From positions 2,356,001 to 2,420,000 of the forward strand of contig NZ_AUKG01000001.1 in assembly GCF_000424625.1 (NCBI RefSeq): a stretch of DNA of 64,000 nt, in the 5' to 3' direction. Origin of the DNA: Conexibacter woesei Iso977N. GTDB taxonomy: Bacteria; Actinomycetota; Thermoleophilia; Solirubrobacterales; Solirubrobacteraceae. Below the pieces are notes generated by a model that saw nothing but the letters and a program-made list of their open reading frames with translations, made no database searches and was not told the DNA's origin. Within the stretch, counting starts at the first letter, position 1. Every line of letters starts with the position of its first letter. Made by a program: the position numbers and the translations under genes. Positions 30,037-36,949 of this stretch are shown here, one piece after another.

Positions 30037-30699
30037 TCAGCGCAGCTCGTAGCCGACGCCGCGGCGGGTGCGCAGCGCCTCGGGCGCGCCGGCCGCGCGG
30101 AGCTTGCGGCGGATGCGCGCCACGTAGGCGTCGAGCGTGTTGTCGCTGACGGTCGCGCCGTCGGGCCAGCCCGCGGCGACGAGCTGCGCGCGCTCGATCA
30201 GCTCGCCGCGGTGGCCGGCGAGCAGGGCGAGCAGGCGGAACTCGGTGGGGGTGAGGTCGACGCGGCCGGCCGCGGCGGTCACCGACATCGTCGCGGTGTC
30301 GAGCCGCGCGTGGGCCGAGACCGGCGCGGGCCCGATCAGTCCGCCGACGCGCACGAGCAGCTCGGCCAGCATGAACGGCTTGACGAGGTAGTCGTCGCCG
30401 CCCGCCGCAGTGGCCGCGCGGCGGGAGGCGACGTCCGGGTCCCTGGAGGTGAACAGCACCGGCGTCGCGACGCCGCGGTCGCGCAGCCGGCGGCAGACGT
30501 CGCGGCCGTCGGCGCCCGGCAGGTCGATGTCGACGATCAGGACGTCCGGCGGCGCGGCGCCGAACGCCAGCTCGGCATCGGGCCCGGTCGCGACCGCGGT
30601 CGTCTCGAACCCACCCTGCGTCAGCGCACGCCGCAGCGCATCGCGCAACGCATCGTCGTGCTCGCAGATCCCGGCCCGCAGCGGCGGCGCGTCGCTCAT
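30037..30699 (-). CDS. OmpR-family response regulator (no adjacent kinase)
   Basis: This 220-residue protein has a receiver domain with Asp57 in VLIVDIDLPGADG and switch Lys in DDYLVKPF. A winged helix follows (LTPTEFRLLALLAGHRGELI to YVARIRRKLRAAG). No histidine kinase is next to it, so it is an orphan. Upstream lie two copies of a TCAGG direct repeat with 11-bp pitch, also found before the COG4705 gene at 31622 and the PAP2 gene at 32994. This is the arrangement expected for an autoregulated OmpR regulator. It follows a COG4705 gene on the same strand after 63 bp. Confidence 0.92.
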   Translation of the reverse strand: MSDAPPLRAGICEHDDALRDALRRALTQGGFETTAVATGPDAELAFGAAPPDVLIVDIDLPGADGRDVCRRLRDRGVATPVLFTSRDPDVASRRAATAAGGDDYLVKPFMLAELLVRVGGLIGPAPVSAHARLDTATMSVTAAAGRVDLTPTEFRLLALLAGHRGELIERAQLVAAGWPDGATVSDNTLDAYVARIRRKLRAAGAPEALRTRRGVGYELR

Positions 30700-30722
30700 C
30701 AGGACCCACCATGCCCTGCGGC

Positions 30723-30741
30723 ACCTGACACGTTCCTGAAC
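30723..30741 (-). promoter_or_regulatory. OmpR-type operator copy 1 (before the OmpR regulator gene)
   Basis: Read on the minus strand this is GTTCAGGAA-CGT-GTCAGGT, with TCAGG units 11 bp apart. It lies 24 bp upstream of the regulator ATG and belongs to a four-copy family in 2.3 kb. Confidence 0.6.
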
Positions 30742-30760
30742 GCGCGCGCCGATGCGTGAC

Positions 30761-30778
30761 GTTCAGGTTGCGGTCAGG
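30761..30778 (+). promoter_or_regulatory. OmpR-type operator copy 2
   Basis: GTTCAGGTT-GCG-GTCAGG on the plus strand has TCAGG units 11 bp apart. It overlaps the last codons of the COG4705 gene (stop at 30763) and faces copy 1 at 20 bp distance, making a paired site in front of the OmpR regulator. Confidence 0.5.
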
Positions 30779-31530
30779 CTCGCCGACTGGTCCTTCCTCG
30801 TGATCGTCAGGTAGGCGACGAGCGCCAGGATGCAGCCGAGGAAGATGTAGGACGTGCCGGTCGTGCCGAGGCCGAGGCCGCCGTACTTGTGGCTCTTCTG
30901 CGACATCTCGTCGCCGATCGAGGCGCCCAGCGGGCGGGTCAGGATGTAGGCCAGCCAGAACGACAGGATGGCGTTCATCTTGAACACGTAGTGCGCGAAG
31001 GTGACGGCCGCGATCGCGCCGCCGAAGATCGCGATCGAGACGGCGTAGCCGAGGTCGGCCTTCTCGGCCAGGAGGTCGCCGGCGGCCGTGCCGAGCGCGA
31101 AGGTGAACAGGATCGCCAGCCAGTAGAACGCCTCGCGGCGGGTGGTGACGATCGTGTGGATCGACAGCGTGCGCTCGACCGCGTACCAGACCCCGAAGAC
31201 CACGGCGAGGATGACGGCGAAGATCGGCGTCGTCGTGGTCAGCGCGACGTTGTGGCCGTCGGTCAGGTTGTCGGTGATGAGCGTGCCGAACACGGAGATG
31301 ACGACGACGACCGCCCAGTAGGCCACCGGCACGTAGCGGCGCAGCTGGAACTGGACGATCAGCAGCACGGCGAGCAGACCACCGGTCACGTAGGTCGTGT
31401 TGGTCAGCCCGAAGCCGAGGTTGTCGTTGAGGTAGTCGGCCGCCGTCTCGCCGACGGTCGTGCACATGATCTTGATCACCCAGAAGAAGAGCGTGACCTC
31501 TGGGACCTTGTTGAGCATCTTGCGGGTCAT
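30763..31530 (-). CDS. COG4705 membrane protein, copy A
   Basis: This 255-residue protein has about eight membrane helices. The conserved opening KVPEVTLFFWVIKIMCTTVGE and the motifs FALGTAAGDL and LTRPLGASIGDEMSQ mark the COG4705 family of unknown function. The ATG at 31530 is preferred to an upstream TTG. A paralog lies divergently at 31622, about half identical by eye. Being the gene just upstream of the OmpR regulator, it is probably part of the same regulon. Confidence 0.85.
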   Translation of the reverse strand: MTRKMLNKVPEVTLFFWVIKIMCTTVGETAADYLNDNLGFGLTNTTYVTGGLLAVLLIVQFQLRRYVPVAYWAVVVVISVFGTLITDNLTDGHNVALTTTTPIFAVILAVVFGVWYAVERTLSIHTIVTTRREAFYWLAILFTFALGTAAGDLLAEKADLGYAVSIAIFGGAIAAVTFAHYVFKMNAILSFWLAYILTRPLGASIGDEMSQKSHKYGGLGLGTTGTSYIFLGCILALVAYLTITRKDQSASLTAT

Positions 31531-31578
31531 GGCGCCCAACGGTGGCGATCGAACCTTGCAACGTCCTGACTGCTCGCC

Positions 31579-31597
31579 GTTCAGGAAGCCGTCAGGT
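31579..31597 (+). promoter_or_regulatory. OmpR-type operator copy 3 (before COG4705 copy B)
   Basis: GTTCAGGAA-GCC-GTCAGGT has TCAGG units 11 bp apart. It ends 9 bp before the TACGTT -10 element, covering the -35 region, as activating PhoB/OmpR sites do. Confidence 0.6.
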
Positions 31598-31606
31598 AGC
31601 GCGGAC

Positions 31607-31612
31607 TACGTT
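31607..31612 (+). promoter_or_regulatory. -10 element TACGTT of COG4705 copy B
   Basis: TACGTT lies 9 nt before the ATG at 31622, and no -35 match is seen. The operator at 31579-31597 occupies that position, which suggests activator-dependent transcription. Confidence 0.5.
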
Positions 31613-31621
31613 GCCGCGACG

Positions 31622-32434
31622 ATGAGCCGACCCACCTCTTCCCCCACGAAGCTCCCCTCGAAGTTCGCCCCGAAGGTGCCCGAGATCACGGCGCTGTTCT
31701 GGGTCATCAAGATCCTGACGACCGGCATGGGCGAGTCCGCCTCGGACTTCCTCGGCCAGCAGTCGGTGCCGCTGGCGGGCGCGATCGGCGTCTTCGGCCT
31801 GTGGTTCGCGCTGCGGCTGCAGCTGCGCCAGACCAGGTACCGGGCGCCGGTCTACTGGTTCGCCGTGCTGATGGTCGCCGTGTTCGGGACGATGGCCGCC
31901 GACGGCATCCACGACGGCGCGTCGCTGCCCTACAGCGTCACCACCGCCTTCTACGCCGCGGTCGTCGGCGCGATCTTCTTCTTCTGGCACCGCTCGGAGG
32001 GCACGGTCGACATCCACTGCATCGACACGCCGAGGCGCGAGAAGTTCTACTGGGGCGCGGTCCTGGCGACGTTCGCGCTCGGCACCGCGGCGGGCGACCT
32101 GACGGCGATGCCGCTCAACCTGGGGTTCTTCGACTCCGCGCTGCTGTTCGGCGGGATCATCCTGGTGCCGGCGCTGGCGTGGTGGAAGTTGGGGTTGAAC
32201 CCGGTCGTCGGGTTCTGGGCCTCCTACGTCGTGACCCGGCCGCTGGGCGCCTCGTTCGCCGACTGGTTCGGCAAGCCGGTCAGCCAGACCGGCCTCGGCC
32301 TCGGCGACGGCACGGTGACGGGCCTGGCGCTGATCGTGTTCATCGCCCTGGTCGCCTACACCGCGATCGCCAGGAACGACATCCAGGGCCGGGCGACCCG
32401 TCCGGTCCTGCGCCCGCAGCCCTCCGAGGGCTAG
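31622..32434 (+). CDS. COG4705 membrane protein, copy B
   Basis: This 270-residue paralog of the divergent gene at 30763-31530 has a short hydrophilic N-terminus and then KVPEITALFWVIKILTTGMGES, FALGTAAGDLTAMP and VTRPLGASFADWFGKP, with about eight helices. The conserved charged residues inside helices (GES, GDL, RPLGAS) suggest a transport or sensing role, but none is established. The ATG follows a TACGTT -10 element and an OmpR-type operator. Its TAG stop shares CTAG with the convergent PAP2 gene. Confidence 0.86.
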   Translation: MSRPTSSPTKLPSKFAPKVPEITALFWVIKILTTGMGESASDFLGQQSVPLAGAIGVFGLWFALRLQLRQTRYRAPVYWFAVLMVAVFGTMAADGIHDGASLPYSVTTAFYAAVVGAIFFFWHRSEGTVDIHCIDTPRREKFYWGAVLATFALGTAAGDLTAMPLNLGFFDSALLFGGIILVPALAWWKLGLNPVVGFWASYVVTRPLGASFADWFGKPVSQTGLGLGDGTVTGLALIVFIALVAYTAIARNDIQGRATRPVLRPQPSEG

Positions 32435-32994
32435 GCGACGCGGCGGCGCAGCAGCGGGAGGTCGCCGGCGCGGTCGGCGAGGCGATCGGTGAGCGCGCGG
32501 GCGCGTGGGGCGTTGACGGCCAGCGCGGTCGCCGCGCCGAGCGCCGCGCCGGCGAGCACGTCGGTCGGGTAGTGGATGCCCATCGCCACGCGGGTGACCG
32601 CCAGGACCGTCGCGGCGACGAGGGCGACGATGCCCGCGCGGCGGTCGTGGAGCAGCAGCGCGGTGGCGATCGCGAAGGCGGCGGTCGCGTGATCGCTCGG
32701 GAAGCCGGGATCGGCCGCGTGGGCGGCGAAGAGGTGCACGCCGTGCGGGTCGGCGACGAACGGCCGCGGCCGGTCGACGACGCGCGCGACGATCCCGGCG
32801 AGCGCGAGCGCCACCCCGGCGCTCAGCCCCGCCGAGACGACCGCGCGCCGCGCCGCGCCGAACAGCGCGAAGGCGACCAGCAGCGCGCCGAGGAACAGCG
32901 CCTCGGACAGGTTGGCGTACAACACCAACATGTCCTCCAGGCCGTCCACGTGGAGGAAGAGGTGGTTGAGGTCCTTGACGAGCGAGAGGTCCAT
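32431..32994 (-). CDS. PAP2-family membrane phosphatase
   Basis: This 187-residue protein has about five to six helices and the three acid-phosphatase motifs: RVVDRPRP, FPSDHATA and TRVAMGIHYPTDVLAG. The second is PSDH, a common variant of PSGH. Such enzymes remove phosphate from undecaprenyl diphosphate or phosphatidic acid at the outer face of the membrane. GGAG precedes the ATG at 32994. The OmpR-type operator at 33019-33037 is 24 bp upstream, exactly the distance seen before the OmpR gene, so the regulon probably touches cell-envelope lipids. Confidence 0.9.
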   Translation of the reverse strand: MDLSLVKDLNHLFLHVDGLEDMLVLYANLSEALFLGALLVAFALFGAARRAVVSAGLSAGVALALAGIVARVVDRPRPFVADPHGVHLFAAHAADPGFPSDHATAAFAIATALLLHDRRAGIVALVAATVLAVTRVAMGIHYPTDVLAGAALGAATALAVNAPRARALTDRLADRAGDLPLLRRRVA

Positions 32995-33018
32995 GCACGC
33001 TCCATGGTGCGCCGCGGC

Positions 33019-33037
33019 ACCTGACGGATTCCTGAAC
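33019..33037 (-). promoter_or_regulatory. OmpR-type operator copy 4 (before the PAP2 phosphatase)
   Basis: Read on the minus strand this is GTTCAGGAA-TCC-GTCAGGT. Flanking bases (GCGGCACC, CGCG) also match the copy at 30723, so about 30 bp are conserved. It is 24 bp from the PAP2 ATG. Confidence 0.6.
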
Positions 33038-33067: not shown

Positions 33068-33475
33068 TCAGGACTCGCGGCGCAGCGTGCGGCGGGCGTC
33101 GGTCGCGTAGAGCGCCCAGGCGATCAGGGCCGGCTGGAAGAGCAGGCGGACGGCGCGCTTGGTGTCGGTGTCGAGGCCGAAGGCGTCGCGGTGGTTGGTC
33201 AGCTGGGCGAGGTTGCCGGGGAAGACGGCGATGAAGAGCGCGGCGGTCGCGGCGCCGACGGCGGCGCGGCGGGGCTGCTTCCACGTGGTGAGCAGCGCGG
33301 TCGCGAAGCTCAGCTCGACGACGCCCGAGAGCAGGACCGTCGTGTCCTTGTCCAGCGGCACCCAGTTCGGGACCTGCGCCTGGAACTCCTGGCGCGCGAA
33401 CGTCAGGTGCCCGGTGCCCGCGACCAGCAGGAAGCTGCCCAGCGTGAGCTGCGCGGCGGTGCGCAGGCGGCCCAT
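33068..33475 (-). CDS. DoxX-family membrane protein
   Basis: This 135-residue protein has four predicted helices and the DoxX-like pattern LLVAGTGHLTFARQEF, LLSGVVELSFATALL and AVFPGNLAQLTNHRDAFG. DoxX proteins are small membrane proteins tied to quinone or redox processes; the exact role here is unknown. Its ATG overlaps the stop of the STAS gene by one base (TGATG), making it the last gene of the stressosome operon. Confidence 0.82.
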   Translation of the reverse strand: MGRLRTAAQLTLGSFLLVAGTGHLTFARQEFQAQVPNWVPLDKDTTVLLSGVVELSFATALLTTWKQPRRAAVGAATAALFIAVFPGNLAQLTNHRDAFGLDTDTKRAVRLLFQPALIAWALYATDARRTLRRES

Positions 33476-33801
33476 CAGGCCGTCGCCTCGGCGAACCGGA
33501 ACACCGTGGTCAGCCCGGTCAGCTCGAACGTCCGATGCACCTCGGGCCGGCCCGGGATCAACACGTAGGACGAGCCCGACGACTCGGCGTTGTTGTGGAC
33601 GTCGATCAGCGCCCGCAGCCCGGAGGAGTCGATGAAGCTCAGGTCGCGCAGGTCGATCTCGAGGCGGCCGCCGCCGGCCCATGCCTCCTGGACGGCCTCG
33701 CGCAGCTGCGCCACGCGCGCGAGGTCCAGCTCGCCCGTAAGGCGCAGGCGCGCGACGTCGTCCTCACGCTCGACGGTGATCTCGAAGCTTCCTGCATCCA
33801 T
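33475..33801 (-). CDS. STAS-domain anti-sigma factor antagonist (RsbV-like)
   Basis: This 108-residue single STAS domain has the phospho-acceptor motif DLSFIDSSGLRALI, with the conserved serine pair at about residues 57-58. Dephosphorylated proteins of this type bind an anti-sigma kinase and release a sigma factor. The PP2C enzyme encoded 24 bp upstream is the natural phosphatase. A TAGAAT -10 element lies 10 nt before the ATG, so the gene may also have its own promoter. No sigma gene is nearby. Confidence 0.93.
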   Translation of the reverse strand: MDAGSFEITVEREDDVARLRLTGELDLARVAQLREAVQEAWAGGGRLEIDLRDLSFIDSSGLRALIDVHNNAESSGSSYVLIPGRPEVHRTFELTGLTTVFRFAEATA

Positions 33802-33811
33802 GACCGCGCGG

Positions 33812-33817
33812 ATTCTA
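33812..33817 (-). promoter_or_regulatory. -10 element TAGAAT before the STAS gene
   Basis: TAGAAT is the most A/T-rich hexamer in the 24-bp gap between the PP2C and STAS genes. It lies 10 nt from the ATG and could give an internal start within the stressosome operon. Confidence 0.45.
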
Positions 33818-33825
33818 GTTCAACC

Positions 33826-35232
33826 TCAGCGGCGCCGGGCCATCAGCAGCGCCACGTCGTCGCGCAGCGAGGAGGTGTCGACGAGGCTGCGGACGAGGCG
33901 GCCGCGCAGCTCCTCAAGCTCCTCGCCGCCGGCCTCGGCCGCCGCCGTCACCATCCGCGCCAGCGAGTCGTCGATGATCTCCCCGGGCCGCTCGATCAGG
34001 CCGTCGGTGTACAACACCAAACGATCACCGCTCCTGAACGGCACCTCGTACTCACTGCACCTCGCGCCCACCACACCGAGCACGACGCCGGTCGGCCCGT
34101 CGGCCAGCCGCGGCGCGCCGTCGCCCGGCAGCAGCAGCGGCGGCGGGTGCCCGGCCCGGACGACCCGGACCCTCTCCGCGTCGTGGTCGATCGCCACCAC
34201 GCACATCGTCGCCATCTCGGTCAGCTCGGCGGCGGTCACCAGCTCGTTGAGGCGGTGCACGGTCTCCAGCGGCGTGAAGCCCTCGTTGGCGTACACGCGC
34301 AGGCTGTGGCGCAGCTGGCCGGCCTGCGCGGCGGCGGCCACCCCGTGCCCGGCGATGTCGGCGATCACCAGCCACACGCTGCCCTCGGTCTCGACGACGT
34401 CGTACCAGTCGCCGCCGACGATCAGCTCGCGCTCGGCGGCGACGTGCCACGCGTGCAGCTCCAGCTCCGGCCGTCGCGGCAGCCGCTCGGGCAGCAGGCT
34501 CTGCTGCAGCGCGCGCGAGATCGTCCGCTCGGTCGCCAGCGCCAGCTTGCTCGCCGTCACGTCGCTGAGCGTCACGACCGTGCGCGCGATGCTCGCGGGG
34601 TCGGAGGGATCGGGGGCGACGGGGTCGACCCGGACCCGGAACACGCGGTCGCCGAGCGTCACCTCGTCGCCCGCCGCCGGATCGGCCAGCGCGTCGATCC
34701 GCGTCCCGTCGATCGCCTCGCCGAACAGCGCCCGGAACGTGCGGTTGGCGCGCTCGATCGCGCCGTCGGCGTTCAGGACCGCGACCGCGTCGGTGATCGC
34801 GTCGAACGTCGTGCGCCACTCGCGCGCGGCCAGCCGGACCTCGGCCTCGGCCGAGCGGGCGCGCAGCAGCGACCGGATCGTCGCCGCGAGCACCGGCGCC
34901 TCGACCGGCTGCGTGAGGTAGGCGTCGGCGCCGGTCTCCAGGCCCTCGACCTGCGCCTCGGTCTCCAGGAACGTGGCGGACAGCAGCAGCACCGGGATGT
35001 GCCGCGTCGGCTCGCTGGACTTCAGCCTCCGGCACGCCTCGAAGCCGTTGAGGCCGGGCATCTTGACGTCGAGCACGGCGAGGTCGGGCGGCGCCTGCAG
35101 CGCCTCGGCGACCGCCTGGTCGCCGTCGGCCGCCTCGCGCACGGCGAAGCCCGCGCGCCGCAGCATCGTCGCGATCACGTACCGGCCGACGTCGTCGTCG
35201 TCGGCGAGCAGGATGACGGGCTCACTGGCCAT
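33826..35232 (-). CDS. REC-PAS-PP2C (SpoIIE/RsbU-like) phosphatase
   Basis: This 468-residue signalling phosphatase has a receiver domain (about 1-125, Asp55 in LAVLDVKMPG), a PAS-like domain (about 140-240) and a SpoIIE-type PP2C catalytic domain. The metal-binding motifs of the last are GGDWYDV, IADIAGHG and SSLRDDVALL. It would dephosphorylate a STAS antagonist such as the next gene product. The ATG at 35232 is set by GGAGG 5 nt upstream; a GTG at 35238 is in frame. It overlaps the hybrid kinase by 11 bp, which is its probable phosphodonor. Confidence 0.92.
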   Translation of the reverse strand: MASEPVILLADDDDVGRYVIATMLRRAGFAVREAADGDQAVAEALQAPPDLAVLDVKMPGLNGFEACRRLKSSEPTRHIPVLLLSATFLETEAQVEGLETGADAYLTQPVEAPVLAATIRSLLRARSAEAEVRLAAREWRTTFDAITDAVAVLNADGAIERANRTFRALFGEAIDGTRIDALADPAAGDEVTLGDRVFRVRVDPVAPDPSDPASIARTVVTLSDVTASKLALATERTISRALQQSLLPERLPRRPELELHAWHVAAERELIVGGDWYDVVETEGSVWLVIADIAGHGVAAAAQAGQLRHSLRVYANEGFTPLETVHRLNELVTAAELTEMATMCVVAIDHDAERVRVVRAGHPPPLLLPGDGAPRLADGPTGVVLGVVGARCSEYEVPFRSGDRLVLYTDGLIERPGEIIDDSLARMVTAAAEAGGEELEELRGRLVRSLVDTSSLRDDVALLMARRR

Positions 35233-36949
35233 CGGCACCTCCGGTGACTCGGTTCAAGACCTCCAACAACTCCGCGCGCGACGTCGTCGACTTGTCGATC
35301 GTCGCGGCGCCCAGCTCCGCGATCCGGGCCCGCGCGCGCTCGTCCAGCAGCCGCGAGGTGTGGATCACGACCGGCAGCGCGCTCGCGTCCAGGCCGGCGT
35401 CCTCGCGCAGCCGCCGCAGGACCTCCAGCCCGTCGAGGCCCGGCATCGACAGGTCGAGCACGATCGCCGCGGGCCGGGCCAGCGCGACGGCGGCCAGCGC
35501 GGCCTCGCCGTCGCCGACCATCGTCACGCGCCAGGCGCTGTCGCGCAGGTGCGCCTCGACCACGTAGCGCGCGGTCTCGTCGTCGTCGACGACCAGGACC
35601 GAGCCGCCGACGTCCGGGATCGGCGGCGCCTCGGGGTCGGCGGTCGACGGCATCCGGACGGTGAACGTCGTGCCCGCGCCGACCTCGCTGGTGACGTCGA
35701 TCGTGCCGCCCAGGACGCCGACGAGCTTGCGCGCCAGCGGCAGCCCGAGGCCGGTGCCCTTGCGCCGCCGCTGCAGCTCGCCGGGGATCTGGACGAACTC
35801 GTCGAAGACGCGCGCGAGGTCGGTCGCGGCGATCCCGATGCCGGTGTCGACGACGCGGAAGACGACGACGCGCCCCTCGGCGACCGCCGAGACGACGACC
35901 TGCCCGCCGGGCGTGAACTTCAGCGCGTTGGACACCAGGTTGCGCAGGACCTGCGTCAGCTTGCCCTCGTCGGTGTGCAGCACCGGCAGGTCCGGGCCGG
36001 CGTCGAAGCGCAGGTCGACGCTGCCGTCGAGCGCCAGCGGCCGCAGTTGGCCGCGCAACATGGTGAAGAGCTCGGCGGCCGAGACGTCGGCCAGCTCCAG
36101 CTCGAGGTGACCGGCCTCGATCTTGGCGATGTCGAGCAGGTCGCCGACGACGCGCAGCTGCTCGTCGGCCATCTGCCGGACGAACCCGACCTGCGTGACC
36201 TGCTCGCCGACCAGCGCCGGCTCGCCGCTGAGCAGCAGTTCGGTCAGCGCGACGATCGAGTTCAGCGGCGTGCGCAGCTCGTGGCTCATGTCGGCCAGGA
36301 AGCGCGACTTGCGGTCGTCGGCGTCGCGCAGCCGCTCGGCGCGGTCGTCGAGCTCGGCGTAGAGCGCGACGACGCCGCGGTTGGTGTCCTCCAGCTCGCG
36401 GTTGAGCGCGACCAGCTCCTGCTGGCGCGCCCGGACCTCGCCGAGCGCCTGCAGCAGCTCCTCGTTCTGGCGCGTGACCTCGTCGTAGGGGTTGTGCGCC
36501 CCGCGCCGGGTCAGCGCGTCGCGCAGCTCGCGGACCGGCGGCGCGGCGCGCCCGGCCGGCAGCCGCTTGGACACCGTCACGCGCGTGCCGCGGCCGGGCG
36601 TCGTCTCGATCGCGAAGTCGTCCATCAGCAACCGGACGCCGACGAGCCCGCGGCCCATCCCGGTCCTCGACACGTAGCGGCCGTCGAGCACCTCGTCGAG
36701 GTGCGGGATCCCGTCGCCCTGATCGGCGACCTCGATCTCCAGTCGCTCCGGATGGCGGAGCAGTCGCACACGCCCACCGGTCGCGTAGCGGTGCGCGTTG
36801 CGCGCCAGCTCGGAGACCGCGGTGGCGATCCGCGTCTGCTCCATGCGGTCGAAGCCGAGCAGGTCGGCGACGTCGCGCGCGCTCTGGCGCGCGGTCACGA
36901 CGGCCTCGTCGTGGCGCAGCTCGACGCGGGTGATCTCCTCGCCGCTCAC
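35222..36949 (-). CDS. Hybrid kinase: RsbW-like ATPase + HisKA/HATPase + REC
   Basis: This 575-residue protein has an unusual domain order. Residues 1-130 form an RsbT/RsbW-like serine-kinase ATPase (N-box VSELARNAHRYA, G-boxes DQGDGIP and GMGRGLVG). A coiled coil (150-212), a HisKA domain with His223 in ADMSHELRTPLNS and a second ATPase (NLVSNALKFTPGG, KGTGLGLPLA) follow. A C-terminal receiver has Asp499 in IVLDLSMPG. Two catalytic ATPase modules in one chain could connect Ser/Thr partner switching with His-Asp phosphorelay. Its ATG overlaps the preceding stop (ATGA). Confidence 0.93.
   Translation of the reverse strand: MSGEEITRVELRHDEAVVTARQSARDVADLLGFDRMEQTRIATAVSELARNAHRYATGGRVRLLRHPERLEIEVADQGDGIPHLDEVLDGRYVSRTGMGRGLVGVRLLMDDFAIETTPGRGTRVTVSKRLPAGRAAPPVRELRDALTRRGAHNPYDEVTRQNEELLQALGEVRARQQELVALNRELEDTNRGVVALYAELDDRAERLRDADDRKSRFLADMSHELRTPLNSIVALTELLLSGEPALVGEQVTQVGFVRQMADEQLRVVGDLLDIAKIEAGHLELELADVSAAELFTMLRGQLRPLALDGSVDLRFDAGPDLPVLHTDEGKLTQVLRNLVSNALKFTPGGQVVVSAVAEGRVVVFRVVDTGIGIAATDLARVFDEFVQIPGELQRRRKGTGLGLPLARKLVGVLGGTIDVTSEVGAGTTFTVRMPSTADPEAPPIPDVGGSVLVVDDDETARYVVEAHLRDSAWRVTMVGDGEAALAAVALARPAAIVLDLSMPGLDGLEVLRRLREDAGLDASALPVVIHTSRLLDERARARIAELGAATIDKSTTSRAELLEVLNRVTGGADGQ

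What the first reader, a model, noticed from the sequence alone, without database searches (positions are those of the whole stretch)
30723..33037. Four-copy OmpR-type operator defines a small regulon of an orphan response regulator
GTTCAGGAA-N3-GTCAGGT (TCAGG units 11 bp apart) occurs at 30723-30741 and 33019-33037 (both minus), 31579-31597 (plus) and, slightly degenerate, 30761-30778 (plus). Sites stand before the OmpR regulator gene itself, a COG4705 membrane protein and a PAP2 phosphatase. The distance to the ATG is 24 bp for both the OmpR and PAP2 genes. At 31579 the site takes the place of a -35 element. The inference is one regulon joining two uncharacterised COG4705 proteins with an envelope lipid phosphatase.
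Basis: partly seen in the sequence, partly recalled or inferred. Interest (0 to 1): 0.72.

Follow-up and report, generated by a model that had tools for sequence, protein, structure and literature searches.

The report
Conserved envelope-lipid regulon with duplicate regulator
Four neighbouring genes of this actinobacterium share a switch-like promoter built on a tandem TCAGG repeat; the same promoter recurs in related bacteria before genes linked to recycling of the cell-wall carrier lipid and before uncharacterised DUF347 membrane proteins, which makes the function of DUF347 testable.

Summary
The sites are real and above chance: the exact motif occurs 3 times in the 5.70 Mb genome, all in this locus. 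The core is TCAGG-N6-TCAGG. In 30 of 30 promoters of recognisable regulon genes (5 from this genome, 25 from relatives), a -10-like NANNNT starts 9 or 10 nt after the box and ends 6-9 nt before ATG: apparently leaderless promoters whose box covers the -35 position.

The regulon is larger than reported. This genome adds a DedA-UppP operon, an ApbE/ferric-reductase operon, perhaps a second UppP, and a complete RR-HK pair on another contig. In relatives one RR clade and its kinase often lie near DUF347, DedA, UppP or PAP2 genes.

So the window regulator does not define the regulon. It is a fast-evolving paralogue of RR2, found in 1 of 7 genomes of the genus, with His in place of an acidic-pocket Asp.

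Best reading: a PhoB/OmpR-type two-component system for undecaprenyl-phosphate recycling and envelope upkeep, with DUF347 as a core member. The kind is known; regulon and DUF347 link appear new in the library searched. Binding and stimulus are untested.

The parts
30037..30699 (-). OmpR/PhoB-family response regulator (window RR), no kinase gene beside it
   Evidence: Pfam Response_reg and Trans_reg_C; tree and pocket residues
30723..30741 (-). exact box GTTCAGGAACGTGTCAGGT of the RR promoter
30708..30713 (-). -10-like CATGGT, 10 nt after the box, 8 nt before ATG 30699
   Evidence: inferred from the fixed spacing in 30 of 30 promoters
30761..30779 (+). inverted box GTTCAGGTTGCGGTCAGGC, 61 nt upstream of the RR start and inside the 3' end of the minus DUF347 gene; possible auxiliary operator
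   Evidence: similar placing before UppP in L218
30763..31530 (-). DUF347/COG4705 protein a, 255 aa, predicted 8 helices
   Evidence: PF03988, 4 repeats; AlphaFold2 pLDDT 94
31554..31570 (-). degenerate box GTCAGG-N5-GCAAGG of the DUF347a promoter, a variant also seen in relatives
31539..31544 (-). -10-like CACCGT, 9 nt after the box, 8 nt before ATG 31530
31579..31597 (+). exact box GTTCAGGAAGCCGTCAGGT of the DUF347b promoter
31607..31612 (+). -10-like TACGTT, 10 nt after the box, 9 nt before ATG 31622
31622..32434 (+). DUF347/COG4705 protein b, 270 aa, 41% identical to a
   Evidence: PF03988
32431..32994 (-). PAP2-family phosphatase; nearest NCBIfam models are undecaprenyl-diphosphate phosphatases, below their cut-offs
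33019..33037 (-). exact box GTTCAGGAATCCGTCAGGT of the PAP2 promoter
33004..33009 (-). -10-like CACCAT, 10 nt after the box, 9 nt before ATG 32994

Best explanation
The sites are operators of a conserved PhoB/OmpR-type two-component system. Inferred mechanism: the phosphorylated response regulator binds two TCAGG half-sites 11 bp apart that cover the -35 region, recruits RNA polymerase to a -10 element 9-10 nt downstream, and starts a leaderless mRNA at or next to the ATG. The regulon renews undecaprenyl phosphate and maintains the envelope: UppP and PAP2 phosphatases, a DedA-family protein, DUF347 membrane proteins, and (in this genus) an ApbE/ferric-reductase operon. In this genome the full system is RR2-HK2 on contig C2. 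The window RR is a recent, box-preceded paralogue of RR2 with an altered phosphorylation pocket. Having kept most of the recognition helix, it probably binds the same boxes and modulates or competes with RR2. Shown: boxes, promoter geometry, co-occurrence, kinship. Inferred: binding, activation, leaderless start, physiological role.
For: Promoter grammar in 30 of 30 classified promoters (hexamer at 10 nt in 22, at 9 nt in 8); shuffled spacers have a NANNNT 6-9 nt before ATG in 7.6% on average, 40% at most, none of 2000 reach 100%. The 10 promoters of a lipoprotein family, not among the 30, all obey it too. Order scan: 88 matches in 52 of 232 genomes against 4 control matches. Phylum sample: 31 matches in 26 of 396 genomes against 0 control matches. 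Targets among 88 box-ATG pairs, this genome included: 18 DUF347, 6 DedA, 3 ApbE-operon leaders, 2 RR, 1 PAP2; in the phylum sample DedA 3 and DUF347 2 plus one weak. Own-genome DedA-BacA/UppP operon and UppP. DedA, UppP or PAP2 near RR, HK or DUF347 in relatives. RR clade of 36, support 100/100. Exact box before DUF347 in 17 of 22 loci with a clade RR, 4 of 56 without. Phylum: 8 of 9 genomes with the RR have the grammar, 18 of 387 without. HK2 has HisKA and HATPase_c and is 65% identical to the relatives' kinase. Pocket E-H instead of E-D only in the window RR. Window RR in 1 of 7 genus genomes.
Against: No binding, expression or start-site data. 58 of 88 order-level pairs are not in these families; 10 of them precede one lipoprotein family and 22 have reading frames under 60 aa. 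Of 25 phylum matches outside this genome that I looked at, 10 have frames under 60 aa and 3 precede RRs outside the clade, so chance matches remain and other regulators may use a similar box. Only 3 of 8 clade-RR loci fetched by RR alone have a core box within about 1.5 kb (2 of 21 for others). Among GC-rich loci the RR-box association is weaker (17 of 22 against 4 of 18, p 0.001). RR2's own box lies 33 nt before a GTG, not 21-25 before an ATG. Of the 12 core boxes in the genome, 4 were not assigned to a gene. The PAP2 and DedA proteins miss the cut-offs of the undecaprenyl-specific models.
Confidence: 0.72

Rival explanations
1. One reading: the window RR is the regulator of a small local regulon, activated by a distant kinase or without phosphorylation.
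For: Its own promoter and two neighbours carry the only exact GTTCAGGAANNNGTCAGGT boxes of the genome; its recognition helix is close to RR2's.
Against: Genus relatives carry the boxes before DUF347, DedA and the ApbE operon without a seen orthologue of this RR; boxes also lie far away in this genome; a pocket Asp is replaced.
Confidence: 0.15
2. The sites are repressor operators: the box overlaps the -35 region and a bound regulator blocks polymerase.
For: The boxes overlap the promoter.
Against: Box-to-(-10) spacing is fixed at 9-10 nt in 30 of 30, as expected where the regulator contacts polymerase; by counting, the usual -35 position falls inside the box. No search for separate -35 elements was made.
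Confidence: 0.1
3. Chance or promoter duplication: similar short sequences copied with the promoters, without a regulator.
For: RR and PAP2 promoters share TGCCGC after the box.
Against: Whole-genome count, controls and recurrence before unrelated genes in many genomes.
Confidence: 0.02

Closest known systems
PhoB/OmpR-family two-component systems with direct-repeat boxes (PhoB, PmrA; C. glutamicum MtrA and PhoR)
   Same: Winged-helix RR with membrane histidine kinase; tandem repeat with 11-bp period. PMC3353115 (passages seen) gives 8-bp repeats with a 3-bp linker for MtrA and PhoR. Box close to the -10 as in pho boxes (recalled).
   Different: Other half-site (TCAGG); apparently leaderless starts; other regulon. 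MtrA and PhoR repeats there are (A/G)TAACAAT and CCTGTGAA.
ColRS of Pseudomonas putida
   Same: Works alike: OmpR-type RR for membrane lipids; PAP2 and DgkA among its targets (PMC2689224, passages seen).
   Different: Different binding motif (ACGNNTTTTTNAC at first); Gram-negative. RR kinship to ColR not tested.
DUF347/UppP operons named in the Frankia metal paper
   Same: PMC4531530 (passages seen) reports three paralogous operons with UppP and DUF347 up-regulated under lead stress and proposes export with precipitation.
   Different: No regulator or box in the passages seen; box in Frankia not checked here.
CutRS of Streptomyces
   Same: Actinobacterial two-component system for secretion stress outside the membrane.
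   Different: CutR binds TAWATAAA (PMC12802291, passages seen).

Membership tests
OmpR/PhoB response regulator | Receiver plus Trans_reg_C winged helix | tested here: met
   window RR: PF00072 70.7 bits, PF00486 74.8 bits
OmpR/PhoB response regulator | Acidic pocket pair, phospho-Asp, Thr/Ser and Lys in the receiver | tested here: inconclusive
   Asp, Ser and Lys present; second acidic residue is His in the window RR, Asp in RR2
Complete two-component system (window RR) | Histidine kinase gene beside the RR | tested here: not met
   neighbours are an amino-acid permease and DUF347
Complete two-component system (RR2-HK2, contig C2) | Histidine kinase gene beside the RR | tested here: met
   HK2 directly downstream, HisKA 50.2 and HATPase_c 61.1 bits
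Complete two-component system (RR2-HK2, contig C2) | Phosphotransfer from HK to RR | not testable with these tools
   needs biochemistry
PhoB-type direct-repeat operator | Tandem half-sites about 11 bp apart close to a -10 | tested here: met
   spacer 6 gives 31 matches against 0-7 for the other spacers 0-20, apart from 14 at spacer 19, mostly DUF347 coding sequence
PhoB-type direct-repeat operator | Regulator binding | not testable with these tools
   EMSA or ChIP needed
DUF347 (PF03988) | DUF347 repeats over the cut-off | tested here: met
   212.8 and 144.3 bits, cut-off 28.2, 4 repeats each; only two DUF347 genes found in the genome, both here
UppP/BacA | Equivalog model over its cut-off | tested here: met
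   L218 gene 348.7 bits against 308; the copy behind DedA in L217 passes Pfam BacA only
UptA undecaprenyl-phosphate transporter | Equivalog model over its cut-off | tested here: not met
   DedA-family protein of L217: best model UptA, 136 bits against 250; VTT domain met, 78.6 bits

The most novel reading that the evidence does not exclude
DUF347 is an undiscovered part of the undecaprenyl-phosphate cycle, for example a carrier-lipid translocase or a transporter coupled to phosphate released by UppP/PAP2. The window RR would be a phosphorylation-blind duplicate that tunes the whole regulon by competing for its boxes.
Probability: 0.15. Interest if true: 0.85.

Novelty: new member of a known kind. 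Interest (0 to 1): 0.6.

Why it matters
It gives a precise, searchable promoter grammar for a two-component regulon in non-model Actinobacteria and ties a widespread protein family of unknown function (DUF347, in bacterial and archaeal records) to carrier-lipid recycling. That turns an open question, what DUF347 does, into direct tests: mutant phenotypes with drugs that trap the carrier lipid, metals, and lipid-carrier assays. It also offers a natural case of a duplicated regulator that kept its DNA contacts but lost a phosphorylation-pocket residue.

Tried and rejected
The relaxed core is what is conserved.

A second peak at spacer 19 (14 matches) proved mostly antisense DUF347 coding sequence.

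An earlier count said the -10 starts at 10 nt in 24 and 9 nt in 6 promoters; the recount is 22 and 8.

CutRS was considered as a namesake and dropped: other motif. The MprA box (a TCAG-type repeat, recalled) could not be checked: no paper holds the phrase, and the papers that mention MprA were not opened.

DUF347 fold: model confident (pLDDT 94). Foldseek against PDB gave nothing better than E 0.18; the second look gave Z at most 6.8, HGSNAT and MFS chains, not informative for a helical bundle. No PDB sequence relative of DUF347a at E up to 1.

Searches whose listings showed no paper on this box, regulon or the regulation of DUF347: 25 of 43 papers listed; 15 of 38 listed; only an open-licence library was searched, and of the papers found I saw passages of four.

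Pfam on a stretch of L337, given as 1110-1500 minus without checking its frame, found nothing.
Full report
What is there. The window (73.8% GC) lies on contig C1 of a 5.70 Mb genome; the closest named DUF347a relative is in a Conexibacter MAG (88%). The locus holds, on the minus strand, an OmpR-family response regulator (RR, 30037-30699), a DUF347 gene (a, 30763-31530), a PAP2 gene (32431-32994), and on the plus strand a second DUF347 gene (b, 31622-32434). These two are the only DUF347 genes found in the genome.

Is it more than chance. TTCAGGAANNNGTCAGG has 3 exact matches in the genome, all here, and one further match with one mismatch. That one lies 21 nt before the predicted start of a small Ser/Thr-rich protein followed by ApbE and a ferric-reductase-like membrane protein. 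The core TCAGG-N6-TCAGG gives 12 matches against 2 control matches. Of the 12, three are the exact window promoters, one is the inverted window site, one precedes DedA-UppP, one the ApbE operon, one RR2, one lies inverted upstream of UppP, and four were not assigned.

Promoter grammar. In the order, boxes that stand 20-25 nt before an ATG number 88 in 52 of 232 genomes, with 4 control matches. I looked at 87 of these 88 (88 box-ATG pairs, one box having two ATGs); the one left out precedes the lipoprotein family named below. The downstream protein was similar to a window-regulon protein in 30 of 88 pairs, 5 of them from this genome. In all 30 a NANNNT hexamer starts exactly 10 nt (22 cases) or 9 nt (8 cases) after the second TCAGG and ends 6-9 nt before the ATG. 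Shuffled spacers have a hexamer ending 6-9 nt before the ATG in 7.6% on average, 40% at most; none of 2000 shuffles reached 100%. The hexamer was not part of the search pattern. The 10 promoters of the lipoprotein family, outside these 30, show the same spacing, 10 of 10. Shine-Dalgarno-like words occur in 2 of 30. This fits class II activation with a start at the ATG (inference from known promoter geometry). The window promoters obey it: RR 10 and 8 nt, PAP2 10 and 9, DUF347b 10 and 9, and DUF347a with the degenerate box GTCAGG-N5-GCAAGG 9 and 8. The same GCAAGG variant stands before DUF347a relatives in L097, L102, L105, L115, L120 and L126. A genome search with the second half-site relaxed finds 7 places against 0 control matches: the four window promoters, DedA, the ApbE operon, and one before a protein of unknown function with a signal-like N-terminus.

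The regulon. Among the 88 pairs: DUF347 18, DedA 6, Ser/Thr-rich leader of the ApbE operon 3, RR 2, PAP2 1, unclassified 58. Of the unclassified, 10 precede one lipoprotein family without a Pfam match in the member tested; singles include a phosphatidylglycerol lysyltransferase-like protein, an MGDG-synthase-like glycosyltransferase, an acyltransferase and a trypsin-like protease; 22 have frames under 60 aa and may be chance. In G001 and G005 ApbE and ferric-reductase genes also follow the small protein. In this genome DedA overlaps a BacA/UppP-like gene in one operon, and a clear UppP (348.7 bits, cut-off 308) has an inverted box 57 nt upstream of its start. In relatives DedA, UppP or PAP2 genes lie near RR, HK or DUF347 genes (for example L100, L103, L104, L106, L107, L113, L115, L135, L275, L292, L298), and DedA is followed by UppP or PAP2 behind the box in L297 and L311. 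Loci had been chosen by DUF347 or by the box, so this is not a frequency. Characterised UppP, PAP2 and DedA proteins act in the undecaprenyl-phosphate cycle (established knowledge), hence the assignment; the PAP2 and DedA proteins here miss the cut-offs of the specific models. A phylum sample of 396 genomes has the grammar 31 times in 26 genomes and no control match. Of 25 of the 26 matches outside this genome: DedA 3, DUF347 2 plus one weak, lipoprotein family 2, RRs outside the clade 3, frames under 60 aa 10 (the weak DUF347 one among them), the rest unclassified.

Which regulator. In many relatives an RR of one clade with an adjacent kinase accompanies DUF347. A tree of 69 RRs gives a clade of 36 (100/100) that holds the window RR. 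In the same genome a kinase 65% identical to the relatives' kinase lies on contig C2 directly behind its own RR (RR2), with a box upstream. Window RR and RR2 are sisters (96/86), 56% identical over 227 columns, but the window RR has the far longer branch (0.8 against 0.23). Among the 35 clade rows with that region aligned it alone has His at the second acidic-pocket position, the others Asp; the alignment to PrrA agrees. In the genus search its best outside matches are 61% (G001) and 59% (G003), both closer to RR2 (82.5% and 68%), so an orthologue was seen in 1 of 7 genomes; three of the seven are only 65-81% complete. DUF347 genes with boxes are present in 4 of the 6 others (G001, G002, G003, G005). 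So the box does not depend on the window RR.

Tests of the RR-box link. Among 78 DUF347a genes from the named collection, an exact box within 150 nt upstream is present in 17 of 22 with a clade RR (by a signature pattern) in the locus and 4 of 56 without; restricted to GC-rich loci, 17 of 22 against 4 of 18, p 0.001. Loci chosen by DUF347 may bias this, so I also searched the phylum sample by RR2: 9 of 396 genomes hold a clade RR (54% identity or more, next 47%; at most 7 candidates a genome were scored, so some may be missed), and 8 of 9 have the grammar against 18 of 387 (p 1e-9; outside the own order 6 of 7 against 17 of 375, p 2e-7). Against: only 3 of 8 of those RR loci have a core box within about 1.5 kb (2 of 21 non-clade loci), and the signature pattern missed 2 of the 8. 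Of 38 clade RR genes, 22 have a core box within 260 nt upstream, 8 in direct and 17 in inverted orientation, some in both; inverted ones may serve a divergent neighbour. The inverted window site at 30761 fits this habit but is unproven.

Mechanism. Kinase HK2 senses an unknown envelope signal; RR2 activates the leaderless promoters. The window RR gene is itself behind a box. With its recognition helix largely kept and its pocket altered it may bind regardless of phosphorylation, as partial activator or competitor. These steps are inference.

DUF347. The model has eight helices; 28 positions are invariant in 90 sequences, among them acidic E28, D32, D87, E133, D152 and D207. No PDB chain matches with confidence. 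PMC4531530 (passages seen) reports UppP-DUF347 operons up-regulated under lead stress, an independent sign that the two work together.

Known or new. OmpR-type systems with 11-bp direct repeats are well known; ColRS is a functional analogue that includes PAP2. The listings showed no paper on this box, this regulon or the regulation of DUF347.

Noticed in passing
L038 6094-8022 (G000:C1:1872093-1874021): Box-driven operon of a Ser/Thr-rich protein without Pfam match, ApbE and a ferric-reductase-like membrane protein; box and gene order recur in G001 and G005. It hints at flavinylation outside the membrane without a recognisable FMN-binding-domain protein in the operon.
   Followed up: partly
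L053, L251, L254, L276, L279, L280, L282, L283, L284, L312, L313, L344, L345: A lipoprotein family (SAATGDIPDNQNFL...YPEGW...DKNNLVRI) repeatedly stands behind the same promoter, also outside the order; no Pfam match in the member tested.
   Followed up: partly
L327, L328, L338: Response regulators outside the clade also have the promoter grammar before them, so the TCAGG repeat may be used by more than one OmpR-type subfamily.
   Followed up: no
L289 and L337: By eye, similar secreted beta-propeller proteins (L289: YNCE in Pfam) behind the box in two genomes of different families.
   Followed up: no
window 33475-36949: STAS protein, SpoIIE phosphatase with receiver, and a hybrid kinase with a second HATPase_c_2 domain form a partner-switching-like cluster next to the regulon.
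   Followed up: no
L140: Record titled Bifidobacterium breve MAG, but the contig has the same length and DUF347 locus as G015:C3 of this window's own family, so the organism name looks wrong.
   Followed up: no
L106 12436-12463, L107 4543-4516: Three TCAGG units in a row at 11-bp spacing upstream of DedA-UppP gene pairs.
   Followed up: no
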